Shown here: piece after piece, positions 41,382 to 63,746 of the stretch | How the letters are laid out: each line of letters starts with the position of its first letter | How positions within the stretch are numbered: the first letter of the stretch is position 1 | DNA from: Paraconexibacter algicola | GTDB taxonomy: Bacteria > Actinomycetota > Thermoleophilia > Solirubrobacterales > Solirubrobacteraceae | Reading direction: 5' to 3' | DNA: 64,000 nucleotides | NCBI RefSeq assembly: GCF_003044185.1 | Contig: NZ_PYYB01000001.1 | Coordinates: forward strand, 2,004,978-2,068,977 | The notes under the pieces: generated by a model | Databases searched by the model: none | The model's input: the letters and a program-made list of their open reading frames with translations, nothing else | What the model was told of the DNA's origin: nothing | Translations under genes and position numbers: made by a program

Positions 41382-42554
41382 TTACGAACCGCGCATCGCG
41401 TCGCGCAGCCCGGTCTCGACCTGCCTGGACGCCGCCGCCCATGAGCGCTCGGCGGCCAGCGTGAGCCCGTCGCGCGTGCGCTCCGCGCGCGCGAGCAGGT
41501 CGTCGAGGAGCGTCTCGATCGCGTCGGCGATCGCCACCGGATCGACCGGCGCCAGCGCGATGGGGCCGTCGTCGCCGAAGGTCGCGCGCATCGACGGCGT
41601 CGCGAGGTCCACGACGGGCAGCCCGCAAGCGAGCATCTCGGTCGGCACCAGCGACGGGTTCGTCAGCGAGAGCACGAGACCGACCGACGCGCTGTTGTAG
41701 GCGTGCGCGAGCCCCTCGGGGTCGAGGACCCCCAGCTCGCGCGCCGGGTACGGCACGTCGAGCGGCCGCGCCTCACCGAAGTGCGCGATCTCCACCGACG
41801 GACGACGACGGTGCAGCTCCTCCAGGGCCAGGACGCCGAGCGGGACCGCGCGCCGCGGCGTCACCGCGCGCGCGTAGAAGAGCACGAGGTCCTCGCGGCG
41901 GTGAACGGCCTGCGTGCGGTAGGCGTCATGGTCGACGCCGAGGTCGAACGACGACGCGCTGCCCCCGTACTCCTCACGCACGATCGAGGCGAGCCACGGG
42001 GACGCGCAGATCGCGTGCAGGCCCTGCCGGTAGGTCCAGGCCGCCCACTCGCGCTCGACCGAGGTCGCGTAGAACTCCGGCTCGTGGTCCTGCACGAGGT
42101 ACGCGCGCGACCGCGCGCCGCGCAGGCGCAGCACCGCCGGCACGGTCTGCCAGCCGGTCGCGACCACGACGTCCACCGGGCGGTCCGACAGCGCTGCGGG
42201 ATGCAGGCGCGCCACATCCGCGCGCATCGCCCCGAAGAACTCGTGGAACTGCGAGCGCAGATCGGCGTCCGAGGCGCCCCCGTGACGACCCTCCTCGTCG
42301 ACGACCCACAGCGAGAGCCGGTGCCCGAGGCCCTCGAGCCCGCGCACGAGATCCGCGATCGTCTTGTGCCCTCCGCTGCCGCGCCGGAACTGCGGGACGA
42401 CCACCGCGACCTCGAGCGTGTCCGCGTCCGCCCGGTCGGTCGCCCCCGGCGCGAGCGGCACGGCGCCGTCCCGCAGGGCGGCGAGCATCCCGGGGGCGAG
42501 CCGGACGGCCAGCGGCTCGTTCGTCGCGCCGCCGCGGCGCAGCAACGGGCTCAA
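41382..42554 (-). CDS. WsaF-like family 4 glycosyltransferase
   Basis: A 390-aa GT-B protein related to WsaF rhamnosyltransferases: VAVVVPQFRRGSGGHKTIADLV, VVVATGWQTVPAVL, YLVQDHEPEFYATSVE, DLGVDHDAYR, LVLFYARAVTPRRAV and LVLSLTNPSLVPTEMLACGLPVVDL. It is paralogous to the second half of the gene at 43776. The only upstream in-frame initiator is TTG at 42554, which overlaps the TGA of a possible 9-codon leader ORF (42551-42580) as TTGA, the same overlap style as other coupled genes here. dTDP-rhamnose is the likely donor by family analogy. Confidence 0.85.
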   Translation of the reverse strand: MSPLLRRGGATNEPLAVRLAPGMLAALRDGAVPLAPGATDRADADTLEVAVVVPQFRRGSGGHKTIADLVRGLEGLGHRLSLWVVDEEGRHGGASDADLRSQFHEFFGAMRADVARLHPAALSDRPVDVVVATGWQTVPAVLRLRGARSRAYLVQDHEPEFYATSVEREWAAWTYRQGLHAICASPWLASIVREEYGGSASSFDLGVDHDAYRTQAVHRREDLVLFYARAVTPRRAVPLGVLALEELHRRRPSVEIAHFGEARPLDVPYPARELGVLDPEGLAHAYNSASVGLVLSLTNPSLVPTEMLACGLPVVDLATPSMRATFGDDGPIALAPVDPVAIADAIETLLDDLLARAERTRDGLTLAAERSWAAASRQVETGLRDAMRGS

Positions 42555-46794: not shown

Positions 46795-47598
46795 CTAGAG
46801 GTTCTCGGCGATCCGCGGGCTCGCCCGGCGGAACACGAACGCCCCGGCCACGAACGCGCCCGCGATGATCCCCAGTGGGATCAGCAGCTCCGCGTAGCCC
46901 CCGATCAGCGACACGGTCGTCGGCGCGTCGGAGTCGATCACCGCGTGCCGCATCTGCGTCGTCAGCGACGCGATCGGGTTGTACAGCAGCGCCTGCTGGT
47001 ACTTGTCGGGCACGGTCGGATCCACCACGTACAGGACCGCGGACGCGTAGAAGAGGATCTGGCTCATGACCTCCCAGATCGGGAAGACGTCGCGGTACCG
47101 CACGTACAGGGAGCTCAGCAGCATCCCGATGCCGGTCGCGAAGATCGCCAGCAGCAGCACGATCGGGATCAGCTGCAGCCACATGAGCGTCGGATAGACG
47201 CCGTTGGCGAGCGCGAAGATCAGGGCCGCCCCGAGCGTCGTCATGAGGTTCATCAGCCCTGTCGCCGTCACCGACAACGGGATCACGATCGGCTCGAAAG
47301 CCATCTTCCGCAGCAGGCTCTCCCGCTCGACCAGGCACTGCACCGACGTGACCGTCACCTCGGCGAAGAAGTTGAACAGCACCATCGCGAACAGGATGTA
47401 GACGCCGTAGTTCTCGACGTTCGCGTCGAGCCCGGCGATCTCCGTGAAGACGAAGTAGATGACGCCGAAGAACGCGAACGGCCGCACGAGCGTCCACAGG
47501 ACGCCGAGCGTCGAGCCGTAGAAGCGCAGGCGGAAGTCGGTGACCGCCAGCGTCCAGACGAGGTTGAAGATCCGGCGTAGCTCGGACGTCGAGATCAT
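46795..47598 (-). CDS. wzm: Polysaccharide ABC exporter, permease subunit (Wzm-like)
   Basis: A 267-aa ABC-2-type permease with six hydrophobic segments. Typical landmarks are the amphipathic start (LRRIFNLVWTLAVTDFRLRFYGSTLGVLWTLVRP region), LVERESLLRKMAFEP and the YVRYRDVFPIWEVMSQILFYASAVLY segment. With the ATPase it exports a finished lipid-linked polysaccharide across the cytoplasmic membrane. The ATG overlaps the stop of the ATPase gene (ATGA), so the two are one transcript with the ATPase first. Confidence 0.92.
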   Translation of the reverse strand: MISTSELRRIFNLVWTLAVTDFRLRFYGSTLGVLWTLVRPFAFFGVIYFVFTEIAGLDANVENYGVYILFAMVLFNFFAEVTVTSVQCLVERESLLRKMAFEPIVIPLSVTATGLMNLMTTLGAALIFALANGVYPTLMWLQLIPIVLLLAIFATGIGMLLSSLYVRYRDVFPIWEVMSQILFYASAVLYVVDPTVPDKYQQALLYNPIASLTTQMRHAVIDSDAPTTVSLIGGYAELLIPLGIIAGAFVAGAFVFRRASPRIAENL

Positions 47599-48932: not shown

Positions 48933-51197
48933 ATGACCGCCACACTGCTCTGCGCCGCTCTTGTCGTCGTCGGATCGCTCACGGTGGGGCAGGCTGTCCT
49001 GCGCCTCTGCGGCGCCTCGTCCTTCAGCTGGCTGTCGGCCCCGGTCGGCCTCAGTGCGCTCATGGTCCTCGGCAGCATCGCGGTCCATGTCCCGGGGCGC
49101 GCGAACACGACGGCGCTGCTGCTCGGTCTCGTGATCGTCGCCTCCGTGGTCCTGCAGGTCCGCGAGCCGGCGCAACGCCCGCCGCTCCTCGGACTCGCCG
49201 CAGCGCTCCCGGTACTCGGCCTCGTGCTGGTCCCGTTCGTCGCGGCGGGACATGGCGGGATCCTCGGGGTCAGCTTCAACAACGACACGGCCGCGCACCT
49301 CTTGCTGGCTGAGACGTACGGCGACGCCGCCGTTCAGCGCTTCTCGGAGCTCAAGCCGGTCGGCTACCCGCTGGGGCCGCACGCGCTGATGACGACCGTT
49401 GCCCACGTATTCGGCGTCCGCACCGACCACGCGCTCACCGGCTTGACCCTTGCGGTCCCGTTGCTGCTCGGGTGGACCGCACTCGGGGCACTCCAGCATC
49501 CGCGTCGATGGGCCGCACCGTTCGTGTGCCTCGTCGCGGGCATGCCGTACCTCGTGGCCGCGTACTACGGGCAGGGCGCGTTCAAGGAGCTCGTGCAGGC
49601 GCTCTTCGTGCTCGGCGCGGCGGTGGCGCTTGCCGTGCCGCCTGCCTTGCGGGCCCGGGCGAGGTGGGTGCCGTTCGCCATGGTGCTGGCAGGCACCGTG
49701 TCGGTCTACTCGACCGTCGGCATGGCATGGCCACTCGCGTTCGCTGCGGTCTGGCTCGCCTTCGAGGCGCTGGCGGTGCTGCGAGCGGGCGGAGGTCTCC
49801 GCGCGCTCCTGACCGCCGCCCGTGACGGCCTGGGTGCCGTGCTGATCGGGGTCGGGGTGCTCGTCGCCGTGCTGCTGCCCCAGCTCGGTCGGATCCTGGA
49901 CTTCGTCGGCAGCGACGCCGCCACGATCGAGGACAGCGATCTCGGAAACCTCGTCGGCCCGCTGCCTTTCGGGCAGGCACTGGGCATCTGGGACAACCCG
50001 GACTTCCGCTTTTCCGCGCTGAACGACAGGGCGATGCGGCTCTGGGCGGCGTTCGTCGGCGTGTTGCTCCTGGTGGCGCTGGTGCGCGCCGTCGGGCGCC
50101 GCAGGCTCATGGTGCCCGCGTGCGCCGCAACGGCTGCCGCGATCTGGGCGGTCTCGGATGCGAGCCAGTCCCCGTACGTCGCCGGCAAGGCGCTGATCAT
50201 CGCGTCGCCGCTGCTCCTGCTGATGGCGGCTCAGGCCCTCGTCGAGGGCGATGGGGCGATCGATCGCCGGCTCGGGCGGTTGCGCCTGATCGCGCCCATC
50301 GCCGCGATCGTGCTGGCCGTCGGCGTCACGGACGCCAGCACCAGCGCGCTGCGATTCGCGAAGGTCGGGGGCACGAGTCACGCTGACCAGCTCCGCGCGC
50401 TGCGTTCGACGCTCGACGCGCGTCCGACGCTCTTCCTCGGCAACGACGACTTCCTGCGCTGGGAACTCGCAGGGGTCCCTGTGGAAGCGCCGTTCATCGG
50501 ATTCCAGGTCCTGCCGATCAGGTCCGGGAAGCCCGCAGACGCCCTGGGTCCGTTCGATGTCGACAGCCTCGAAGCGTCGACGCTCAACCGCTTCACCTGG
50601 GTCATCGCGCCGCGCGATGCAACCGCGAGCAGCGTCCCCCGACAGCTCCGCCCGATCCGACGTACCCGCGACTTCGTGCTCTATCGGCGTACGGGCACGA
50701 TCGCCGAGCGCGAGATCCTCCCGACCGAAGGGGGCAATGGGGCGGCTCCCTTGGACTGCAGCACTCCTGAGGGTCTGCGCCTGAGTCGTCGCACGGGGAT
50801 CGCCGGCGTTCGGGCGCCCGCGGTCGGCGTCGAAGCCCCGCCCGTTCCTCCCGGTGGGCAGATCACGGTCACCCTTCAGCTGACTGCCGGATTGTGGGAC
50901 CTCGTCGCGCCGTACAGCGGACCACGGCCGCTCGAGGTCCGCTCCCCGGGCGGGTTCGCCCGCCGGCTGGAGCCGAACCTGGACCGGGGAGTGACGCGTT
51001 TCCCGATCGGGCGACTGCGGGTTCGCCGAGCAGGTCCGGTCGGGGTGACCTTCACCGCGATGGACACGCCGCTGACGGCCTCGTCCGACGTCACGACGGT
51101 CGGTGCCGTCATCGCGGTCCCGGTCGCCCCGGAGACACGGCTGCCACTGCCCGAGGCGTGCGGCAAGCTCGTGGACTGGTACTCCTTCCGGGAATGA
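48933..51197 (+). CDS. Large multi-pass membrane protein (DUF6541-like), candidate GT-C or polymerase
   Basis: A 754-aa protein with about 12 TMs in the first ~480 residues and a C-terminal extracytoplasmic beta-rich region (~480-754). The loop GVSFNNDTAAHLLLAETYGDAA contains an acidic Asp after a TM, as in GT-C-like proteins, and AYYGQGAFKELVQALFVLG is a typical large-membrane-GT segment. It may transfer a sugar or polymer outside. The last eight residues (VDWYSFRE) and the stop lie inside copy 3 of the 39-bp repeat, so the C-terminus appears to have been supplied by the repeat. Confidence 0.75.
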   Translation: MTATLLCAALVVVGSLTVGQAVLRLCGASSFSWLSAPVGLSALMVLGSIAVHVPGRANTTALLLGLVIVASVVLQVREPAQRPPLLGLAAALPVLGLVLVPFVAAGHGGILGVSFNNDTAAHLLLAETYGDAAVQRFSELKPVGYPLGPHALMTTVAHVFGVRTDHALTGLTLAVPLLLGWTALGALQHPRRWAAPFVCLVAGMPYLVAAYYGQGAFKELVQALFVLGAAVALAVPPALRARARWVPFAMVLAGTVSVYSTVGMAWPLAFAAVWLAFEALAVLRAGGGLRALLTAARDGLGAVLIGVGVLVAVLLPQLGRILDFVGSDAATIEDSDLGNLVGPLPFGQALGIWDNPDFRFSALNDRAMRLWAAFVGVLLLVALVRAVGRRRLMVPACAATAAAIWAVSDASQSPYVAGKALIIASPLLLLMAAQALVEGDGAIDRRLGRLRLIAPIAAIVLAVGVTDASTSALRFAKVGGTSHADQLRALRSTLDARPTLFLGNDDFLRWELAGVPVEAPFIGFQVLPIRSGKPADALGPFDVDSLEASTLNRFTWVIAPRDATASSVPRQLRPIRRTRDFVLYRRTGTIAEREILPTEGGNGAAPLDCSTPEGLRLSRRTGIAGVRAPAVGVEAPPVPPGGQITVTLQLTAGLWDLVAPYSGPRPLEVRSPGGFARRLEPNLDRGVTRFPIGRLRVRRAGPVGVTFTAMDTPLTASSDVTTVGAVIAVPVAPETRLPLPEACGKLVDWYSFRE

Positions 51198-51209
51198 GCG
51201 CACGTCCAC
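51171..51209. repeat. 39-bp palindromic repeat, copy 3, across a gene junction
   Basis: Matches GTGGAC-N6-TCCTTCMGGGAA-N9-GTCCAC with the same 39-base length as the two copies near 13.6 kb. It encodes the last eight residues and the stop of the membrane protein and, in the overlapping frame, the first five residues (MSARP) of the next gene; the ATGA overlap is inside it. Confidence 0.8.
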
Positions 51210-52369
51210 TCCTCCGCAACGAGATAATGGCGCTCTACGAGCAGCTGCTCGGGCGTACCCCCGCCGACGCAGAGGTCGATGCGCAGCTCGAAGCTGCACC
51301 CGACCTGCAGATGCTGCTGCGCGTCATCGTCGACTCCCCGGAGTACGCCCTGCGGCTCGCCACACCCCGCGAGCAATCGCCGCCCCCGCCGCCCGCGCGG
51401 GTCAACATCCACCATGCCGACCTCGCCGAGTGGGCCCACCCGGTAGGGGCCGAATCCGAGGACGGGGTGGCCACCGTCGGTCGCGACGGTTACCTGTTCC
51501 TCACCGGGGGAACCAACGCGAACGTCGCGCAGTTCACGGGCCGTTGGACCGCCCCGGACGGCTGGCTCGACGCCTGGGCCACAGGGGTTGCCAAGCGATT
51601 CGCGGACCTCGAACGGCTCGGAGCACGCGGCGTCCTCCTGGTCGTCCCCGACAAGCTCTCGATCCTGCCCGAGCTGCTGCACGAGCCGCTGGAGGTCGTC
51701 GGGCCCAGCCCCGTTCGGCGCCTGCAGGACGAAACCGATCTGCCGGTGCTGCACCCGGTCCACGAGCTGCTCGCGACGACGGCCGAGCCGTGCATGCGGA
51801 CCGACTCGCACCTGACCTTCGAGGGGAATCGAGCGCTGGCGTCGCTCTTGGCCGACCCGCTGGAGGCGCCGGCCCTGCGCGACGCGTGGTCGGGGACTCC
51901 GCGGGCGTACCTCGCCGCGGGAGACCTCGGCAGGCGATTCGCGCCACCGGTCGTCGAGGTCATGCGCCACACGGACCCCCTTGGGAACGCCCGAATGTCG
52001 TTCGACAACGCGGCCGAGGTCATGGGCGTCGGGGGGCACATCGGACTGCGCCAGGTGCTCGTGAACGATCACGCGCCGGATCCGCGAACGATTGTCGTCT
52101 TCGGGGACTCCTACGCGTTCAGCGGCCCCGGATACCAGGGGCTGGTCTTCTTCTTGGCGCAGGTCTTCGCCGAGGTGCATTTTGTCTGGATCCCGTTCGG
52201 CTGGGACCCGGAGTACGTGCGGCGAGCAGGTGCGCAGCTCGTCGTCTTCCAGGGCGCCGAGCGGTTCGCCGGGCGCGTTCCGAGGCCGCGGGTCGACGCG
52301 CGGGCGCTCGCGGAGGAGACCCTCGCGCGCAAGCGGGCCCTGGGGATCGAGACCGCCTTCGGCGCGTGA
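51194..52369 (+). CDS. AlgX/AlgJ-like SGNH protein, candidate glycan O-acetyltransferase
   Basis: A 391-aa protein. The N-terminal ~55 residues resemble DUF4214 (LRNEIMALYEQLLGRTPADAEVD). After a Pro-rich linker comes an AlgX/AlgJ-type SGNH domain: VGRDGYLFLTGGTN, VLLVVPDKLSILPE, the Asp-x-His pair in RTDSHLTF (Asp204, His206) and the nucleophile block VVFGDSYAF (Ser306). Relatives acetylate exopolysaccharides. No signal peptide is visible, which is odd because AlgX and AlgJ act outside the membrane. The ATG lies inside repeat copy 3 and overlaps the upstream stop. Confidence 0.8.
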   Translation: MSARPLLRNEIMALYEQLLGRTPADAEVDAQLEAAPDLQMLLRVIVDSPEYALRLATPREQSPPPPPARVNIHHADLAEWAHPVGAESEDGVATVGRDGYLFLTGGTNANVAQFTGRWTAPDGWLDAWATGVAKRFADLERLGARGVLLVVPDKLSILPELLHEPLEVVGPSPVRRLQDETDLPVLHPVHELLATTAEPCMRTDSHLTFEGNRALASLLADPLEAPALRDAWSGTPRAYLAAGDLGRRFAPPVVEVMRHTDPLGNARMSFDNAAEVMGVGGHIGLRQVLVNDHAPDPRTIVVFGDSYAFSGPGYQGLVFFLAQVFAEVHFVWIPFGWDPEYVRRAGAQLVVFQGAERFAGRVPRPRVDARALAEETLARKRALGIETAFGA

Positions 52370-52378
52370 GAACGACGC

Positions 52379-53221
52379 TCAGAGCGGAAGTTCGAGCGCG
52401 ATGCAGATGACCGCCCGCGCCGCCGGTGCGCGGTCCGCGACTGGGCTGCGGTCGGCGAGGAAGTCGCGGTAGCGCTCCTGCGCGGCGTCATCGGGCGAGC
52501 ACCGGCGCCACCCGTCGAGTGCGTAGCGGTAGACGACGGCGGAGTGCCGCTGAACCGGCCCGAAGGCGGCGACCAGCGTCTCGACCGCTGCAGCGTCGAA
52601 CTGGCGGAACCAGCCGTGGTCCGTCTCGCGACCGAACGGGAGGCTCAGAAGGATTCGGCCTCCGGGGCGTGTGACTCGCCGCAGTTCGGCGGCTGCTCGA
52701 GCCGCTTCGGCGACCGGGTCCTCCGCTCGGGCCGCATTGCTGCCGTAGTGCGACGTGTCCATTCCTACGTGCTCGAGCGTCGACAGCGAGACGGTGACAT
52801 CGAACCGGCCATCCCTGAACGGGAGGTCGCGCAGGTCGCCGAACACGTAGGAGATCCCGCGCTCCCAGAAGGCGTGCGCCTCGGGGACCAGCGTCGTGAT
52901 CGTCAGCTCGTCCATGGTGGGCAGGAGCGCGTCGAGGACATGCTCATGGTTCAGCGTCGACCCGGCGTCGAGGACGCGCCCCGTCGGCCGCTGACCCGCC
53001 AGCCATGGGAACTCGATCACGCGCTCGTCGAAGCCACCGCCGTAGCCCGCTGGAGGAGGGGACCCGGCTGCGATCGCGGCCACGAGCGCTTCGTCCGCGA
53101 GGGCGGCGGCCACCAGGTCGCGATGCGTCTCTCCGTACGCGAGGCTCCACTCCTCATCCGGTGGCGGGAAGCGTCTCGCCCAATCGGAATCGGGGCCGCG
53201 GCGGCGCAGGAACGAGGGCAC
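52379..53221 (-). CDS. Class I methyltransferase with atypical motif I
   Basis: A 280-aa protein. The SAM-binding strand reads RVLDAGSTLNHEHVLDALL instead of the usual DxGxGxG, followed by ITTLVPEAHAF, DLRDLPFRDGRFDVTVSLSTLEHVGMDTSHY and VTRPGGRILLSLPFG. This GSxLN variant is common among methyltransferases in polysaccharide loci. The substrate is unknown. The GTG at 53221 is supported by a TACTCT -10 exactly seven bases upstream. It ends nine bases from the convergent AlgX-like gene. Confidence 0.82.
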   Translation of the reverse strand: MPSFLRRRGPDSDWARRFPPPDEEWSLAYGETHRDLVAAALADEALVAAIAAGSPPPAGYGGGFDERVIEFPWLAGQRPTGRVLDAGSTLNHEHVLDALLPTMDELTITTLVPEAHAFWERGISYVFGDLRDLPFRDGRFDVTVSLSTLEHVGMDTSHYGSNAARAEDPVAEAARAAAELRRVTRPGGRILLSLPFGRETDHGWFRQFDAAAVETLVAAFGPVQRHSAVVYRYALDGWRRCSPDDAAQERYRDFLADRSPVADRAPAARAVICIALELPL

Positions 53222-53531: not shown

Positions 53532-56500
53532 ATGGACATCTGCACCATCATCGCCAAGAACTACCTCGCCCACGCTCGCGTCCTGGCGCGGTCGTTCGCG
53601 GAGCACCACCCGGATGGCACGTGCCACGTGCTCGTCATCGACGAGGTCGACGGGTACGTCGACGCGGCTGACGAGCCGTTCGCGCTCGTGCGCCCCGGCG
53701 AGATTGGCCTCGGTGACGCCTGGGACGAGATGCGCGGTGCGTACGACGTCATGGAGCTGTCCACGGCGGTCAAGCCGTGGCTGCTGCGGTGGATGCTCGA
53801 CCACCACGACGACGGCTCAGGGATTGCGTACTTCGATCCCGACATCCGCGTGGTCACCCGCATGGTCGAGCTCGAGGCGGCGCTGCGCGAGCACGCCGTC
53901 GTCCTCACCCCGCACGTGACTCAGGGAATGCCGCGCGACGGCCGCAAGCCGACCGAGCAGGACATCCTGATGGCCGGCGTCTACAACCTCGGGTTCATCG
54001 GGCTCTCCGACCGGCCGGACGCGCGACTGCTCGTGGATTGGTGGTCCGAGCGCCTGCGCCGTGACTGCCACGTCGCCCCCGAGCGCGGGTTCTTCGTGGA
54101 CCAGCGCTGGGTCGACTTCGTCCCCGGGCTCGTCGAGGACCTCCTGATCTTCCGTCACCCGGGGTACAACGTCGCCTACTGGAACCTGCCGGAACGCGCG
54201 CTCGGCCGTGATGCTGACGGCTCGTTCACGAGCAACGGCGAGCCGCTGCGCTTCTTCCACTACAGCGGCTACTCGCCCGAGCGGCCGACGTTGCTGAGCA
54301 AGCATCAGGACCGGGTGCGCATCGCTGACAGCGATGAGCTCGCCGCCCTCTGCGACGCGTACGGGAAGGCGCTCGTCGCCGACGGGTTCCACGAGGTCCG
54401 GACGCTGCCCTACGAGTACGACCAGCTGCCGTCCGGCATGCGGATCGTGCCCGTGATGCGACGGCTCTACCGGTTGGCGCTCGAGCTCGAGCAAGCTCCT
54501 GCGTCGCTCTTCACGCGATCGGGGGAGGAGGACTTCCGCCGCTGGCTCGCCGAACCCGCGCCCGACCTGCCCGTCCTCGACCGGCTGCTCGCCCAGATCT
54601 GGCAGACCAGGGAGGACGTCCGGGCGGTCTACCCGCACGTCCAGGGCGATGACCTCGAGGGCTATCTCGGGTGGATGGTCGTGCACGGTGCGGGCCAGAT
54701 CGGACTCGACGACGCACTGCTGCCAGAGGCGCTCGTCGCGCGGTTCGGCTCCCTCCGGGAGTCGGTGACCCCGACGCGCCCCCAAGAAGCGCCGCAGGCG
54801 GCCGATGAGTCCCTTCCCGAGCCGGTCGGGCTCGATGAGCTGCGCACTCCCCGTGCCTTCGGGGTGAACGTCGCCGGCTACCTGCGAGCGGAGCTCGGCA
54901 TCGGCGAGGTCGCCCGTCAGATGATCGGCGCGCTCGACGCGGCCGGGGTGCCGGTCGCCGCCGTCGGCCTGCACGCGCCGCTCAGCCGTCAGGGTCACGA
55001 CTACGTCGCCAGCCGGGAGCTCGACGCGCCGTATCCGGTGAACCTCGTCTGCGTGAACGCGGACGGCCTGCCCGCGTTCGCCAAGGAGGCCGGCCCGGCG
55101 TTCTTCCGCGACCGTTACACGATCGGCGTGTGGTGGTGGGAGACCAGCGAGTTCCCTGAGCGGTTCCACGACGCCTTCCAGTTCGTCGACGAGGTCTGGG
55201 TCGGCACCGAGTTCATCGCCCGCGCGCTCACCGCGGTGTCACCGGTGCCGGTCGTCCACGTGCCGGTGCCCGTCGAGCTCAACGACCACGCGCCACTGCA
55301 GCCGGGCGAGCAGGACTGGCCGGACGGGTTCAGCTTCTACTTCTCCTGGGACTACAACAGCATCGCGAAGCGCAAGAACCCCCTCGGGCTCGTCGAGGCG
55401 TACACGCGCGCCTTCGGTCCGGAGGACGGCGTGCACCTCGTCCTCAAGTGCATCAACGCCGAGCATGCCCCGGACGCCCATCGGCGTGTCCGCGAGGCCG
55501 TGGCCGACAGGCCCGACATCGTGCTGGTCGATCGCTACGTCGACGTCGAGACGAAGAACCGCCTGATGGCCAGCTGCGACTGCTACGTGTCGCTGCACCG
55601 CTCCGAGGGGTTCGGCCTGACCATGGCCGAGGCGATGCTGCTCGGCAAGCCCGTGATCGCCACCGGGTACAGCGGCAACCTCGACTTCATGTCGCCGGCG
55701 AACAGCTATCTGGTGGACCACGAGCTCGTGCCGATCGGGCCGGGTGCCGAGCCGTACGACCCGGACGGGACCTGGGCCGAGCCCGACCTCGAGCACGCTG
55801 CCGCGCTCATGCGCGAGGTCGTTGCCGACCCGGAGACTGCCCGGGAGCGGGGCGCCCGCGCGGCTGCCGACCTGCGCGCGGCGCACAGCCGGCACGCCGT
55901 CGGGGAAGCGCTGGAGGCGCGGCTGGAGCGCGTGGCTGCGCGGCTGCCCGAGGCGCCCCCGATCGAGCTGCGGCCGACCGGGGACGAGGGGCGCGTCGCG
56001 TACCTCGCCGAGATCGTCGCCCGTGGCTCGACCCCGGCGCGGCGCTCGCGTCTGGGGAAGGGCGGCAGCGCGGTGCGCAAGGCAATCCTCCGGGCGATGA
56101 AGCCGTACACCGCCTACCAGGAGACCATCAACCGCGGGATCGCCGAGCAGCTGCAGCAGAGCCTCGAACGCGAGAAGCTCGCCGACGCGCGCGAGCGGGC
56201 TCGCATCGCCGAGCTCGAGCAGCGCCTCGCGGTCACCGAGGCACGGCTCGCCGCCGAGCAGCGCCGCCAGCGGCAGGAGATCGTCCGCGGCGACGGCGCC
56301 ACCGGCGTCCTCCACGCGCGCACGACGGCGCTCGAGGCGTTCGCCGCCCGCTCGACGTACGAAACCCGGGCGCTCCCCTACACCGCCTCGGATCTTCTCG
56401 GGACCCGGGAGGTCGACGGGGTCGGCCGCGTCCTGGGGTACCAGGACGCCGACGCGTCCGCCGCCGGCGACGACGCCTACCGGGCCTTCGAGGAGCTGTT

Positions 56501-57065
56501 CCGGGGCAGCGAGCCGTTCATCGCCGCGCGGCAGCGGCGCTACCTCGACCTGGTGGCCGGCCACGCCCCCGCGGTCGACGTCGGCTGCGGACGCGGCGAG
56601 TTCCTCGACCTGCTCGCCGAGGCCGGCGTCCCGGTCGTCGGGGTCGACGCCGACGCCGGCATGATCGCGCGCTGTCGGGCCAAGGGCCACGAGAACGTCG
56701 TGCACGGCGACGCGGTCGCCTACGTCCGTGAGCTGGAGGCGGGCTCACAGGGCCTCATCTTCAGCGCCCAGGTCGTCGAGCACCTGCCACCGGACGCGCT
56801 CCTCGCGCTGATCTCGGGGGCCGCGGCAGCGCTGCGCCCTGGTGGCCTGTTCATCGCCGAGACGGTCAACCCGCACGCGCCGCCGGCGCTCAAGACGTTC
56901 TGGATGGACATCACCCACCAGCACCCGCTGTTCCCGGAGGCGCTGCTCGCGTTCTGCCACAGCGCCGGCTTCCGTGACGCCTACGTCTTCCACCCCAACG
57001 GCGAGGGCGACGTCGAGACCGACCGCTACACGACCGGCGAGTACGCGATCGTCGCCACGCGCTGA
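53532..57065 (+). CDS. Multidomain GT - GT4 - coiled coil - methyltransferase protein
   Basis: A 1177-aa protein. Residues ~1-290 are a GT-A-like nucleotide-sugar transferase (MDICTIIAKNYLAHARVLARS; YFDPDIRV with DPD at 102-104). Residues ~440-820 are GT4 (FGVNVAGYLRAELGIGEVAR, FYFSWDYNSIAKRKNPLGLVEA, HRSEGFGLTMAEAMLLGKPVIA near 690). A coiled coil covers ~872-917 (QQSLEREKLADARERARIAE region). The C-terminal domain has SAM motif I DVGCGRG (1016-1022) and FSAQVVEHLPPD. The coiled coil next to a methyltransferase recalls WbdD, which caps O-antigen chains and sets their length. GAAGGA sits five bases before the ATG. Confidence 0.88.
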   Translation: MDICTIIAKNYLAHARVLARSFAEHHPDGTCHVLVIDEVDGYVDAADEPFALVRPGEIGLGDAWDEMRGAYDVMELSTAVKPWLLRWMLDHHDDGSGIAYFDPDIRVVTRMVELEAALREHAVVLTPHVTQGMPRDGRKPTEQDILMAGVYNLGFIGLSDRPDARLLVDWWSERLRRDCHVAPERGFFVDQRWVDFVPGLVEDLLIFRHPGYNVAYWNLPERALGRDADGSFTSNGEPLRFFHYSGYSPERPTLLSKHQDRVRIADSDELAALCDAYGKALVADGFHEVRTLPYEYDQLPSGMRIVPVMRRLYRLALELEQAPASLFTRSGEEDFRRWLAEPAPDLPVLDRLLAQIWQTREDVRAVYPHVQGDDLEGYLGWMVVHGAGQIGLDDALLPEALVARFGSLRESVTPTRPQEAPQAADESLPEPVGLDELRTPRAFGVNVAGYLRAELGIGEVARQMIGALDAAGVPVAAVGLHAPLSRQGHDYVASRELDAPYPVNLVCVNADGLPAFAKEAGPAFFRDRYTIGVWWWETSEFPERFHDAFQFVDEVWVGTEFIARALTAVSPVPVVHVPVPVELNDHAPLQPGEQDWPDGFSFYFSWDYNSIAKRKNPLGLVEAYTRAFGPEDGVHLVLKCINAEHAPDAHRRVREAVADRPDIVLVDRYVDVETKNRLMASCDCYVSLHRSEGFGLTMAEAMLLGKPVIATGYSGNLDFMSPANSYLVDHELVPIGPGAEPYDPDGTWAEPDLEHAAALMREVVADPETARERGARAAADLRAAHSRHAVGEALEARLERVAARLPEAPPIELRPTGDEGRVAYLAEIVARGSTPARRSRLGKGGSAVRKAILRAMKPYTAYQETINRGIAEQLQQSLEREKLADARERARIAELEQRLAVTEARLAAEQRRQRQEIVRGDGATGVLHARTTALEAFAARSTYETRALPYTASDLLGTREVDGVGRVLGYQDADASAAGDDAYRAFEELFRGSEPFIAARQRRYLDLVAGHAPAVDVGCGRGEFLDLLAEAGVPVVGVDADAGMIARCRAKGHENVVHGDAVAYVRELEAGSQGLIFSAQVVEHLPPDALLALISGAAAALRPGGLFIAETVNPHAPPALKTFWMDITHQHPLFPEALLAFCHSAGFRDAYVFHPNGEGDVETDRYTTGEYAIVATR

Positions 57066-60895: not shown

Positions 60896-61611
60896 CCTTC
60901 GAGCAGATCCTCATCCATGACGGTGCCGCGGACCCGTCCCGGGATGCCCATCACGATGGCCCGCGCCGGCACGTCAGCCGCGACCACCGCCCCCGCTGCG
61001 ACGAACGCCTCCTCGCCCACGACCACCCCGGGAGTCAGCAGAGCTCCGCCGCCCACGCGGCAGCCCCGCCGCAGCGTCGGCCCGACCAAGGGCTGGCCGG
61101 GGGCGAGTCGGGCCATGGTGTCGTCGTTCATCGTGACAACCCCAGGACCGACGAACACGTCGTCTTCCACCGTCGTCCAGCCGGTGATCCATGAGTGCGA
61201 CTGGATGCGCACCCGAGCGCCGACTCGCGCGTGGACGCCCAACGCGCTACCCCTGCCCAGGACGGACTCGGGCCCGAGCACGGCACGATCCCGGACGTTC
61301 GCCTGGTCGCCGACGATTGCCCCCGCGCCGATCGCCGCCCCTGCGTAGACGACCGCACCGGCGCAGATCACAGCGCCGGCTTCGACGATCAGCGCACCCG
61401 GGTCCTCGCGGGGTGCGCTGGAGCGCGCGCTCAGCGACGCCCGCCGGCCGAGGACCGCGCCGTCGTGCACGACGACACCCGGCCCGAGCTCGACACCGGC
61501 GTGCAGCACGACGCCGACGCCGAAGGTGACATCGTCGGCGATTCGCACACCCGGAGCGGCCCAGAGGCCGGGGCCACGCGGGTCGGGCTGCAGCTCGAAC
61601 GGTCGGGTCAT
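60889..61611 (-). CDS. Left-handed beta-helix (hexapeptide) acyltransferase
   Basis: A 240-aa protein dominated by hexapeptide repeats (GPGVVVHDGAVLG, AGAVVYAGAAIGAGAIVGDQANV, HARVGARVRIQSHSWI, GGGALLTPGVVVGEEAFVAAGAVVAADVP) and a terminal GIPGRV segment. WbbJ/WbpD-like enzymes of this class O- or N-acetylate nucleotide sugars. The ATG overlaps the stop of the GT-sulfotransferase gene (ATGA), so it is downstream in the operon with the sulfotransferase. Confidence 0.88.
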   Translation of the reverse strand: MTRPFELQPDPRGPGLWAAPGVRIADDVTFGVGVVLHAGVELGPGVVVHDGAVLGRRASLSARSSAPREDPGALIVEAGAVICAGAVVYAGAAIGAGAIVGDQANVRDRAVLGPESVLGRGSALGVHARVGARVRIQSHSWITGWTTVEDDVFVGPGVVTMNDDTMARLAPGQPLVGPTLRRGCRVGGGALLTPGVVVGEEAFVAAGAVVAADVPARAIVMGIPGRVRGTVMDEDLLEGQ

Positions 61612-63746
61612 CGGTCCCCCGATGAGATCGGCGCGGTCAGGTCGTAGCCGAGTTCCACGAGCAGGTCGCCGGCGACTGCTTCGAACCGCCCGACGTCCTG
61701 CGGGGTCAGCAGGGTGCGCCAGCGCGCGTCGCGGGACGGATCGGGCGGCTCGGCGAGCATCGTGTGGATCGACCAACGGGCTTCTCGGGAGTGCTGCGGG
61801 CGGCCGTCCGGGGCCTCGGCGAGATCGTCGAAGCGCGCCCGCGCGCGTTCGTGAGCGCGGAGCATCGCCGGGTCGAACGACAAGCGCAGCCAGCCGCAGA
61901 GGTCGCGGAGCACCCGCTCGGTGTTCATGAGCATGTCCTCGTACCGGACCTCGCGATAGTGCGGGACGTTGCCGGCAGCCACGTGCGCCCGCAGATCGCG
62001 GATCGTCGTCTCCCAGTCGCGCGCGACGGCCTCCACGGACCCATCGCCTGGAGCGAACGGCAGGTCCCGGACACTGGCGAGCACGCCGCGCCCGTCTCGG
62101 ATGACGTGCACGATGTGCGCTTCGGGAAGGAGCGCCGCGATCTCGGTTGCATGGGCCGCGTGCCGCGGCGTCTTCTCGCCCCAGCGCGGCTTGCCCTGTC
62201 GCGCGGCATACATGGCGAACACGGTGCGGATGCCGGAAGCCAGAGACCAGCTCGGCAGGCCGCTCAGTGCGGTCCGGACCTCGTCCGGCGTGAGGCGCAG
62301 ATCTGGGAACGTTCCGAGCGAGATGATCGCTTCCCCGGTCTCGCGAGCGTCCGCGTCGATCGAACGCAGGTAGTTCAGGGGGAACGCGATTCCCGTCTCC
62401 GGGCCGATCGCGAGATCGGGGTGCGCGTCAAGCTGCATGCGCAGAAGCGTCGTCCCGGACCGCGGCACGCCGACGATGAACGGTACGGGCGGTTCGCCCG
62501 GCGGCGGGACGAGTCCTCCTGCTGTCTGGTCGGCCCGCCGCCGTAGCCCCCGGCGCCTGGGCGCCGGGGCCTCGGCGTGCGCCGCGAGCTCCGCGCGCAA
62601 CGCGTCCACCTCCGCCTGGAGCCTGCGCGCGTGATCCTGCTGGCTCAGCGCCTCCTTCTCGTGGGCCGCGAATGCCTCGCGCAGCGCGTGTCGGTCGTCG
62701 GCAGCGTCCGCGAGCACGATGCTCAGACGCTCGATCTCTGCCTGCAGCGCGAACTGGCGGAGGTCCTGCCGCGCGGCTAGGCGCACCAGTCGAGCCAGCT
62801 CGTCGAGCGGAGCCCGGGGCACCGGACGCGGAGCGAGGCGTCGGACGACCTCGACGAGCCTCGCTGCATGCCGCGAGGCGGAGTGGTGCGTGACCGCCAG
62901 GTCGCGGTTGGCGAGTCCCATCCGCGCCTGGTAGCCGCCGATCTGCTCCGCCAGGCGGTCCGGGTGGTCGACCGCCGGGCCCTGCTGTCCGCCGAAGTTG
63001 TCCGCCACCATGTCGTCGTAGCGTTCCGGGGTCACCCAGCCGTCCGCGCCGTTGTGGTCGTAGACGAAGACGGCGCGGCCGCAGGCCATCGCCTCGACGA
63101 CGACCCGTGCCTTGCCGAAGACGATGTCGGCGGCCGCGTAGCGCAGCTCAGGGCTTGCTGTCGGCCCGTCCTTCGCGTGCACGCCTGCAGTCTGCAGCTC
63201 GATGCCGTTTCGGGCGCAGGCCTCTCGCAGCACGTCCAGGCGCGGCCCACGCACGTAGTTGCCGAGCGCCAGCGCGACCCGCGGGCGCTGCGGAAGCGGT
63301 CGCAACGGCGCGAACCGGGTCACGTCCACGGGCTGGCGCAAGCGAACGATCTCGACCGGTTCGGCGAGCGCCCTGACGCGTTCCTCCACTCGGTCGTACA
63401 GTGCGACGATCACCTGCGTCAGGCCTGGCACCTGCAGTGGGAGCTGGTGGTCGAAGACGTCACTGTGGGCCACGAACACCTGCGGGACTTCGCCGCGTGC
63501 CGCGGCGAGGTCGGCGGCGACCGCTCCGTCCTGGACGAGCGCCGCGTCAAGTCCGTCGGGGAGATCGGCCGTGCTGGCGGCAACTCGGACGCCGAGGTCG
63601 TAGGCGCGACGGGCCGCCTCGCCGTGTCTCGGCGAGTAGAGCACGACGTCGTGGCCGAGACGCTGCAAGGCGTCGGCCACGGTGAGCGCGTAGGTCTCGC
63701 TCCCACCCAGCCCCTCAAGCGCCTCGGTGGCGAGAACGAGCCTCAT
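61608..63746 (-). CDS. GT4-sulfotransferase fusion protein
   Basis: A 712-aa protein. Residues ~1-310 are GT-B/GT4-like (MRLVLATEALEGLGGSETYAL, YAAADIVFGKARVVVEAMACGRAVFVYDHNG). A coiled coil covers ~330-395. Residues ~420-712 are a sulfotransferase: GVPRSGTTLLRMQ (426 onward) is the 5'-phosphosulfate-binding loop, WGEKTPRHAAHATEI the catalytic/acceptor segment, and VIRDGRGVLASVRD the 3'-phosphate-binding motif. It should add a sugar and transfer sulfate from PAPS to the glycan. The ATG overlaps the BKACE stop. APS kinase (cysC) at 16510 could supply PAPS. Confidence 0.88.
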   Translation of the reverse strand: MRLVLATEALEGLGGSETYALTVADALQRLGHDVVLYSPRHGEAARRAYDLGVRVAASTADLPDGLDAALVQDGAVAADLAAARGEVPQVFVAHSDVFDHQLPLQVPGLTQVIVALYDRVEERVRALAEPVEIVRLRQPVDVTRFAPLRPLPQRPRVALALGNYVRGPRLDVLREACARNGIELQTAGVHAKDGPTASPELRYAAADIVFGKARVVVEAMACGRAVFVYDHNGADGWVTPERYDDMVADNFGGQQGPAVDHPDRLAEQIGGYQARMGLANRDLAVTHHSASRHAARLVEVVRRLAPRPVPRAPLDELARLVRLAARQDLRQFALQAEIERLSIVLADAADDRHALREAFAAHEKEALSQQDHARRLQAEVDALRAELAAHAEAPAPRRRGLRRRADQTAGGLVPPPGEPPVPFIVGVPRSGTTLLRMQLDAHPDLAIGPETGIAFPLNYLRSIDADARETGEAIISLGTFPDLRLTPDEVRTALSGLPSWSLASGIRTVFAMYAARQGKPRWGEKTPRHAAHATEIAALLPEAHIVHVIRDGRGVLASVRDLPFAPGDGSVEAVARDWETTIRDLRAHVAAGNVPHYREVRYEDMLMNTERVLRDLCGWLRLSFDPAMLRAHERARARFDDLAEAPDGRPQHSREARWSIHTMLAEPPDPSRDARWRTLLTPQDVGRFEAVAGDLLVELGYDLTAPISSGDR

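What the first reader, a model, noticed from the sequence alone, without database searches (positions are those of the whole stretch)
53532..57065. A 1177-aa GT-GT4-coiled-coil-methyltransferase protein: possible chain-terminating molecular ruler
Two transferase domains, a coiled coil (~872-917) and a C-terminal methyltransferase (motif I at 1016) are joined. In WbdD, a coiled coil next to a methyltransferase sets the length of ABC-exported O-antigen by capping it. Here an exporter with a substrate-binding-like tail is about 5 kb away. A single protein that polymerises, measures and caps would be an unusual solution.
Basis: inference. Interest (0 to 1): 0.68.

Follow-up and report, generated by a model that had tools for sequence, protein, structure and literature searches.

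The report
Sugar-chain builder fused to swappable cap
A soil-type actinobacterium encodes one large enzyme that probably lengthens a surface sugar chain and then stops it by methylation, and its relatives carry the same chain-building part with different end-capping parts behind the same rod-like linker, so the chain end seems to evolve by swapping caps.

Summary
Window 53532-57065 (+) is one intact 1177-aa gene: a GT8-like glycosyltransferase (1-290), a helical region, a GT4 glycosyltransferase (441-805), a basic amphipathic motif (~841-869), one unbroken helix (857-917) with a moderate single-register coiled coil (870-919), and an intact class I methyltransferase (~979-1177). The exporter 4.7 kb away is real (Wzm plus Wzt with a Wzt_C tail) and is the only Wzt_C gene in the genome. 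The best reading is a polymerase-ruler-terminator that works like WbdA/WbdD, WbbB, WsaE and Klebsiella O7 ORF6, so 'one protein polymerises, measures and caps' is known in principle. New here: (1) reversed order, with the cap at the C-terminus; (2) in Solirubrobacterales the same GT-GT-linker core carries three different cap domains (two methyltransferase types and a FkbM-like one); this protein's closest core relative, in the same genus, has another cap, and the tree needs 6 cap changes; (3) split versions occur as GT-GT plus motif-CC-methyltransferase, mirroring WbdA plus WbdD. Chain capping, length control and the sugar are inferred, not shown. Wzt_C sequences do not track cap type (P = 0.87).

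The parts
53532..57065 (+). GT8-like / GT4 / amphipathic motif / coiled coil / methyltransferase protein, 1177 aa (P0001)
53532..54431 (+). N-terminal GT-A, GT8-like glycosyltransferase domain (aa 1-300; FDPD at the DxD position)
   Evidence: AF2 pLDDT 93; VIA Z 17.1 to glycogenin, 15.8 to LgtC; no Pfam hit
54852..55946 (+). GT4 (GT-B) glycosyltransferase domain, aa 441-805, EX7E intact (E692, E700)
   Evidence: Pfam, fold Z up to 34.3, invariant residues
56052..56138 (+). conserved basic amphipathic motif, aa 841-869 (RKAILRAMKPYTAYQ), candidate membrane/docking helix
   Evidence: highest hydrophobic moment of the linker, 0.5-0.58 against a protein mean of 0.24; retained in many relatives
56139..56288 (+). 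coiled coil aa 870-919, within AF2 helix 857-917
56466..57062 (+). class I SAM methyltransferase ('MTA' cap), aa 979-1177
   Evidence: Pfam; PDB 3dli E 1.2e-30; motifs conserved
46795..47598 (-). Wzm-type ABC-2 permease
   Evidence: PF01061
47595..48863 (-). Wzt ATPase with Wzt_C carbohydrate-binding tail (start approximate); only PF14524 gene in the genome
46219..46785 (+). RmlC, dTDP-rhamnose pathway
   Evidence: TIGR01221 over cut-off
52379..53221 (-). stand-alone methyltransferase of the 'MTB' type, the cap fused to the same core in relatives (GTG start inferred)
41382..42554 (-). WsaF-like (rhamnosyltransferase-type) GT
   Evidence: PF22772/PF21374
43776..45935 (-). GT2 plus WsaF-like GT fusion
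48933..51197 (+). membrane protein with ~10 predicted TM segments, no family
51188..52369 (+). weak AlgX/SGNH-like protein
   Evidence: PF16822 E 0.002, below its cut-off
61608..63746 (-). GT4-like / coiled coil / sulfotransferase fusion, possible second cap protein
   Evidence: PF13469 E 9.9e-30, COILS 360-390

Best explanation
P0001 is a single-chain polymerase-ruler-terminator for a cell-surface glycan, probably rhamnose-containing, exported by the neighbouring Wzm/Wzt. The GT8-like and GT4 domains add sugars to the non-reducing end of the lipid-linked chain. The basic amphipathic motif (841-869) holds the polymerase end at the membrane. The helix/coiled coil (857-919) oligomerises and holds the C-terminal methyltransferase about 75-90 angstroms away, so only chains that reach it are O-methylated at the end, which stops growth and marks them for export through the Wzt carbohydrate-binding tail. 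In relatives the C-terminal cap has been exchanged for other domains behind the same anchor and linker. Shown here (sequence, prediction, comparison): domain content, intact active-site motifs, continuous helix, exporter linkage, cap exchange, split versions. Inferred: donor sugars, membrane anchoring, terminal methylation, length control, recognition by Wzt.
For: Domains and folds; methyltransferase motifs invariant in 9 relatives. The genome's sole Wzt_C gene lies 4.7 kb away. Of 25 loci with a fused cap, 18 have Wzm or polysaccharide-type Wzt inside the stretch fetched (up to ~10 kb each side), and 4 more have Wzt_C on the same contig within 20 kb; these genomes usually hold one to a few Wzt_C genes, so about 1% is expected by chance. 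GT4-to-cap linker 139-187 aa in 25 fused relatives whatever the methyltransferase-fold cap. Cap exchange: nearest core relative, same genus, 63% identical over the core, carries MTB; 6 changes of cap type on the tree; its cap region aligns at 27%, while the MTA relative L110 is 67% identical there. In several split forms the motif and CC stay with the methyltransferase and the GT-GT gene ends shortly after GT4, as in WbdD/WbdA. RmlC and WsaF-like GTs nearby. Precedents WbdD, WbbB, O7 ORF6 and WsaE (PMC11231755, PMC2943079, PMC3482155).
Against: No biochemistry. Wzt_C sequence does not covary with cap type among 25 loci (P = 0.87). The coiled coil is moderate (39 of 1000 shuffles as good) and many fused relatives have none predicted, although their linker length is kept. 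Near-constant linker length gives no sign of tuned rulers. Wzm/Wzt was not clearly found near three capped loci (L123, L129, L130), of which L123 starts at a contig end. [quoted passage not shown]
Confidence: 0.55

Rival explanations
1. The methyltransferase caps the chain, but the coiled coil is only an oligomerisation and anchoring element; length is set by relative rates or another factor, as suggested for WsaE.
For: Coiled coil moderate in P0001 and not predicted in many relatives; [quoted passage not shown]
Against: Linker length kept at 139-187 aa across three cap types; coiled-coil length sets chain length in the WbdD system (PMC11231755).
Confidence: 0.22
2. The methyltransferase decorates internal repeat-unit sugars, and the fusion only channels substrate; it does not stop growth.
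For: Some S-layer glycans carry O-methyl groups (PMC2943079); a second stand-alone methyltransferase lies next door, so methylation may have more than one role.
Against: Exchange of the whole C-terminal domain behind a constant linker, close linkage to a Wzt_C exporter, and the same linker logic in split genes.
Confidence: 0.12
3. P0001 makes an adaptor or side branch rather than the polymer backbone, and the neighbouring WsaF-like GTs polymerise.
For: Several other GTs in the cluster; wsaE homologues in E. coli group 3 capsule clusters are assigned to linker synthesis (PMC10433991).
Against: A terminator module fused to non-polymerising GTs has no precedent among the systems read here (inference).
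Confidence: 0.11

Closest known systems
Klebsiella pneumoniae O7 ORF6 (methyltransferase-kinase / CBM / coiled coil / two GT2)
   Same: One polypeptide with terminator, coiled coil and two rhamnosyl GT modules; Wzm/Wzt export; rml genes in the cluster (PMC11231755).
   Different: Terminator N-terminal, with kinase and CBM; GTs are GT2. Here the GTs come first (GT8-like, GT4), the methyltransferase is C-terminal, and no kinase or CBM is seen.
Geobacillus stearothermophilus WsaE
   Same: Trifunctional: two GT domains plus an O-methyltransferase that caps an exported rhamnan; Wzm/Wzt, rml genes and a WsaF partner (PMC2943079).
   Different: Methyltransferase at the N-terminus.
WbdD/WbdA (E. coli O8/O9a)
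   Same: Methyltransferase plus coiled coil plus amphipathic membrane element; the terminal mark is read by the Wzt CBM (PMC11231755, PMC3482155). Split relatives of P0001 have the same GT-GT plus CC-methyltransferase layout.
   Different: WbdD methyltransferase matches only at motif I (phmmer E 0.55); order reversed; no kinase (O9a type); polymerase fused instead of recruited.
WbbB (Raoultella / Klebsiella O12)
   Same: Polymerisation and termination in one protein (PMC11231755).
   Different: Terminator is an N-terminal beta-Kdo transferase, not a methyltransferase.

Membership tests
GT4 | GT-B fold, Glycos_transf_1 profile, EX7E | tested here: met
GT8-like GT-A | GT-A fold with DxD | tested here: met
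   fold Z 15-17 to GT8 enzymes; DPD motif in the family consensus; CAZy family assignment not tested
Class I SAM methyltransferase | motif I (DxGCGxG) and acidic residue after the second strand | tested here: met
   DVGCGRG 1016-1022, GVD 1037-1039
ABC-transporter-dependent glycan pathway with Wzt CBM | Wzm/Wzt with Wzt_C close to the polymerase/terminator gene | tested here: met
WbdD family | sequence homology to the WbdD methyltransferase beyond the SAM motif | tested here: not met
   phmmer E 0.55 over residues 1014-1056 only
WbdD family | N-terminal methyltransferase (with kinase in the O9a type), C-terminal coiled coil | tested here: not met
   methyltransferase is C-terminal; no kinase family found
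Coiled-coil terminator (functional class) | coiled coil adjoining the terminator domain | tested here: met
   870-919, moderate; helix 857-917
Coiled-coil terminator (functional class) | coiled-coil length sets chain length; terminal residue is modified | not testable with these tools
   needs glycan analysis
WsaE | domain order methyltransferase-GT-GT | tested here: not met
   order is GT-GT-methyltransferase
WsaE | sequence homology to WsaE | not tested
   no WsaE sequence was obtained with the tools
WbbB | N-terminal retaining beta-Kdo transferase | tested here: not met
   N-terminal domain is GT8-like GT-A

The most novel reading that the evidence does not exclude
A modular, evolutionarily re-plugged polymerase-ruler-terminator family in Solirubrobacterales: one conserved GT8-GT4 polymerase, membrane motif and spacer helix, onto which different C-terminal cap domains (two distinct methyltransferase types, a FkbM-like domain, a second GT8-like GT) are exchanged, so that the chemistry of the chain end, and so what the exporter accepts, is an exchangeable cassette.
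Probability: 0.45. Interest if true: 0.65.

Novelty: new variant of a known kind. Interest (0 to 1): 0.52.

Why it matters
Chain-end capping couples glycan length to export in ABC-transporter pathways, known mainly from Gram-negative O-antigens and Geobacillus S-layer glycans. Here the same logic appears in a deep actinobacterial order, in mirror-image domain order, in both fused and split forms, and with natural cap swaps on closely related polymerases. That gives ready-made chimeras for asking whether the cap, the coiled coil or the Wzt tail decides length and export.

Tried and rejected
Covariation of Wzt_C with cap type, as a test that the exporter reads the cap: no signal (25 loci, permutation P 0.87; residual on the ATPase part P 0.85); samples for MTB and FkbM are tiny. 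Direct homology to WbdD: none beyond motif I. Degenerate methyltransferase: rejected, though one relative (L025/L128) does look degenerate, having lost motif I. Broken coiled coil: rejected. Name for the N-terminal domain by Pfam: none; resolved by fold. The COILS matrix and parameters were written from memory and checked on the GCN4 zipper and on shuffles only. My unusable searches had wrong ids, coordinates or limits.

Full report
What is there. The gene at 53532-57065 is intact with a plausible ribosome-binding site. It lies in a member of the order Solirubrobacterales: named relatives found with its profile include Solirubrobacter taibaiensis and Svornostia abyssi, and the window maps to G000:C1:2004978-2068977. 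From N to C the protein has five parts. (i) Residues 1-300: no Pfam family, but a confident AF2 model (pLDDT 93, pTM 0.92) with a GT-A, GT8-like fold (glycogenin Z 17.1, LgtC 15.8, the O-antigen enzyme WbbM 15.3). (ii) A helical segment to about 412. (iii) A GT4 domain 441-805 (fold Z up to 34) with E692/E700 invariant. (iv) A linker 806-978. (v) A class I methyltransferase with conserved SAM-binding and further motifs.

The linker. AF2 makes 857-917 one uninterrupted helix, preceded by a short helix 846-855. Whole-protein shuffles do not reach the score (maximum 1.41 against 1.61, 50 shuffles), but shuffles of the segment itself do so in 3.9%, so the signal is moderate. Just before it lies a basic amphipathic motif (RKAILRAMKPYTAYQ) with the highest hydrophobic moment of the linker, recognisable in many relatives. 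By analogy with the membrane-associated amphipathic helix of WbdD (PMC11231755) I take it as a membrane/docking element; this is inference.

Neighbourhood. Within about 12 kb are RmlC, two WsaF-like GTs, Wzm and a Wzt with the Wzt_C tail, a stand-alone methyltransferase (52379-53221, minus), a 10-TM membrane protein, a deacetylase with DUF3473, a flippase-like membrane protein, a GT2, acyltransferase-like genes, and a GT4-coiled coil-sulfotransferase fusion. The genome has exactly one PF14524 (Wzt_C) gene, and it is this one. Of 25 loci with a fused cap, 18 have Wzm or polysaccharide-type Wzt inside the stretch fetched, and 4 more (G063, G127, G133, G147) have Wzt_C on the same contig within 20 kb; of the other three one (L123) begins at a contig end. 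These counts were made by eye from the tables. Chance would give about 1% (my estimate from one or two Wzt_C genes in 3-5 Mb).

The family is modular. With P0001 as query, 46 of 151 genomes of the order have relatives. Domain HMMs show the same GT8-GT4 core followed by a 139-187 aa linker and then one of several caps: this methyltransferase (MTA), another methyltransferase (MTB), or a FkbM-like domain; one relative has a second GT8-like GT after 133 aa. Across 232 genomes of the order the MTA cap region is found in 28, about 17 of them in long fused frames; MTB is found in 8 with five fusions to the core, and two FkbM-like fusions are seen. In the wider phylum the methyltransferase is mostly in frames of 200-530 aa, so the fusion is largely a feature of this order. 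A tree of the core puts P0001 beside a same-genus protein with the MTB cap (98% SH-aLRT) and needs six changes among MTA, MTB and FkbM. Pairwise, P0001 and that relative are 62-69% identical in the two GT domains and 66% in the amphipathic motif, then drop to 33% in the coiled coil and 27% in the differing cap; an MTA-capped relative is 67% identical in the cap. The window's own stand-alone methyltransferase is of the MTB type, and Svornostia (L119) shows the same pair of a fused MTA and a free MTB.

Split forms. In several genomes (L136, L137, L139, L141) a GT-GT gene sits beside a gene with amphipathic motif, helix and MTA; where examined (L136, L139, L141, L142) the GT-GT gene ends 10-45 aa after GT4. 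That is the WbdA/WbdD layout. So fused and split polymerase/terminator systems coexist in one order.

Mechanism. The best-supported model is polymerisation by the GT domains near the membrane, a rigid spacer of about 75-90 angstroms (50-61 residues at 1.5 each), and end-methylation by the C-terminal domain, producing the mark that the Wzt tail accepts. The evidence is anatomical and comparative. Terminal methylation, length control and donor sugars are not shown. A test of whether Wzt_C tracks the cap type failed to find a link; either the tail reads something else, or the sample is too small, or caps with the same product (O-methyl) need no new tail. I hold about 0.55 for the full model, and more for the weaker claim that the methyltransferase is the chain terminator.

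Known or new. One-protein polymerisation and termination is described for WbbB, Klebsiella O7 ORF6 and WsaE, and coiled-coil rulers for WbdD (PMC11231755, PMC2943079, PMC3482155). P0001 works like these but is not a member of any of them by the features tested: the order is reversed, there is no kinase, CBM or Kdo transferase, and the methyltransferase matches WbdD only at motif I. The reversed order and the exchange of caps behind a conserved core are what I did not find described in the papers read; the literature search covered only open-access papers.

Noticed in passing
61608-63746 (-): GT4-like domain, coiled coil (360-390) and sulfotransferase (PF13469) in one 712-aa protein: possibly a second GT-CC-cap protein in the same cluster with a sulfate cap.
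   Followed up: partly
52379-53221 (-): Stand-alone MTB methyltransferase, divergent from P0001 and homologous to the cap fused to the same core in relatives; a fused MTA with a free MTB is also seen in Svornostia abyssi (L119).
   Followed up: partly
L128 / L025 (G028): A relative whose C-terminal methyltransferase has lost motif I and much of the domain: a natural degenerate cap.
   Followed up: partly
L036 9770-14698: A 1643-aa Actinomycetes relative with the same core plus coiled coil and a C-terminal DUF4915 domain (E 1.1e-21): possibly another cap type.
   Followed up: no
L124, L134 (genus g17): Wzt with a very divergent C-terminal tail (27-37 bits) next to an MTA-capped protein.
   Followed up: no
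48933-51197 (+): 754-aa membrane protein with ~10 TM segments and no Pfam family beside Wzt; could be an extracytoplasmic glycosyl- or acyltransferase.
   Followed up: no
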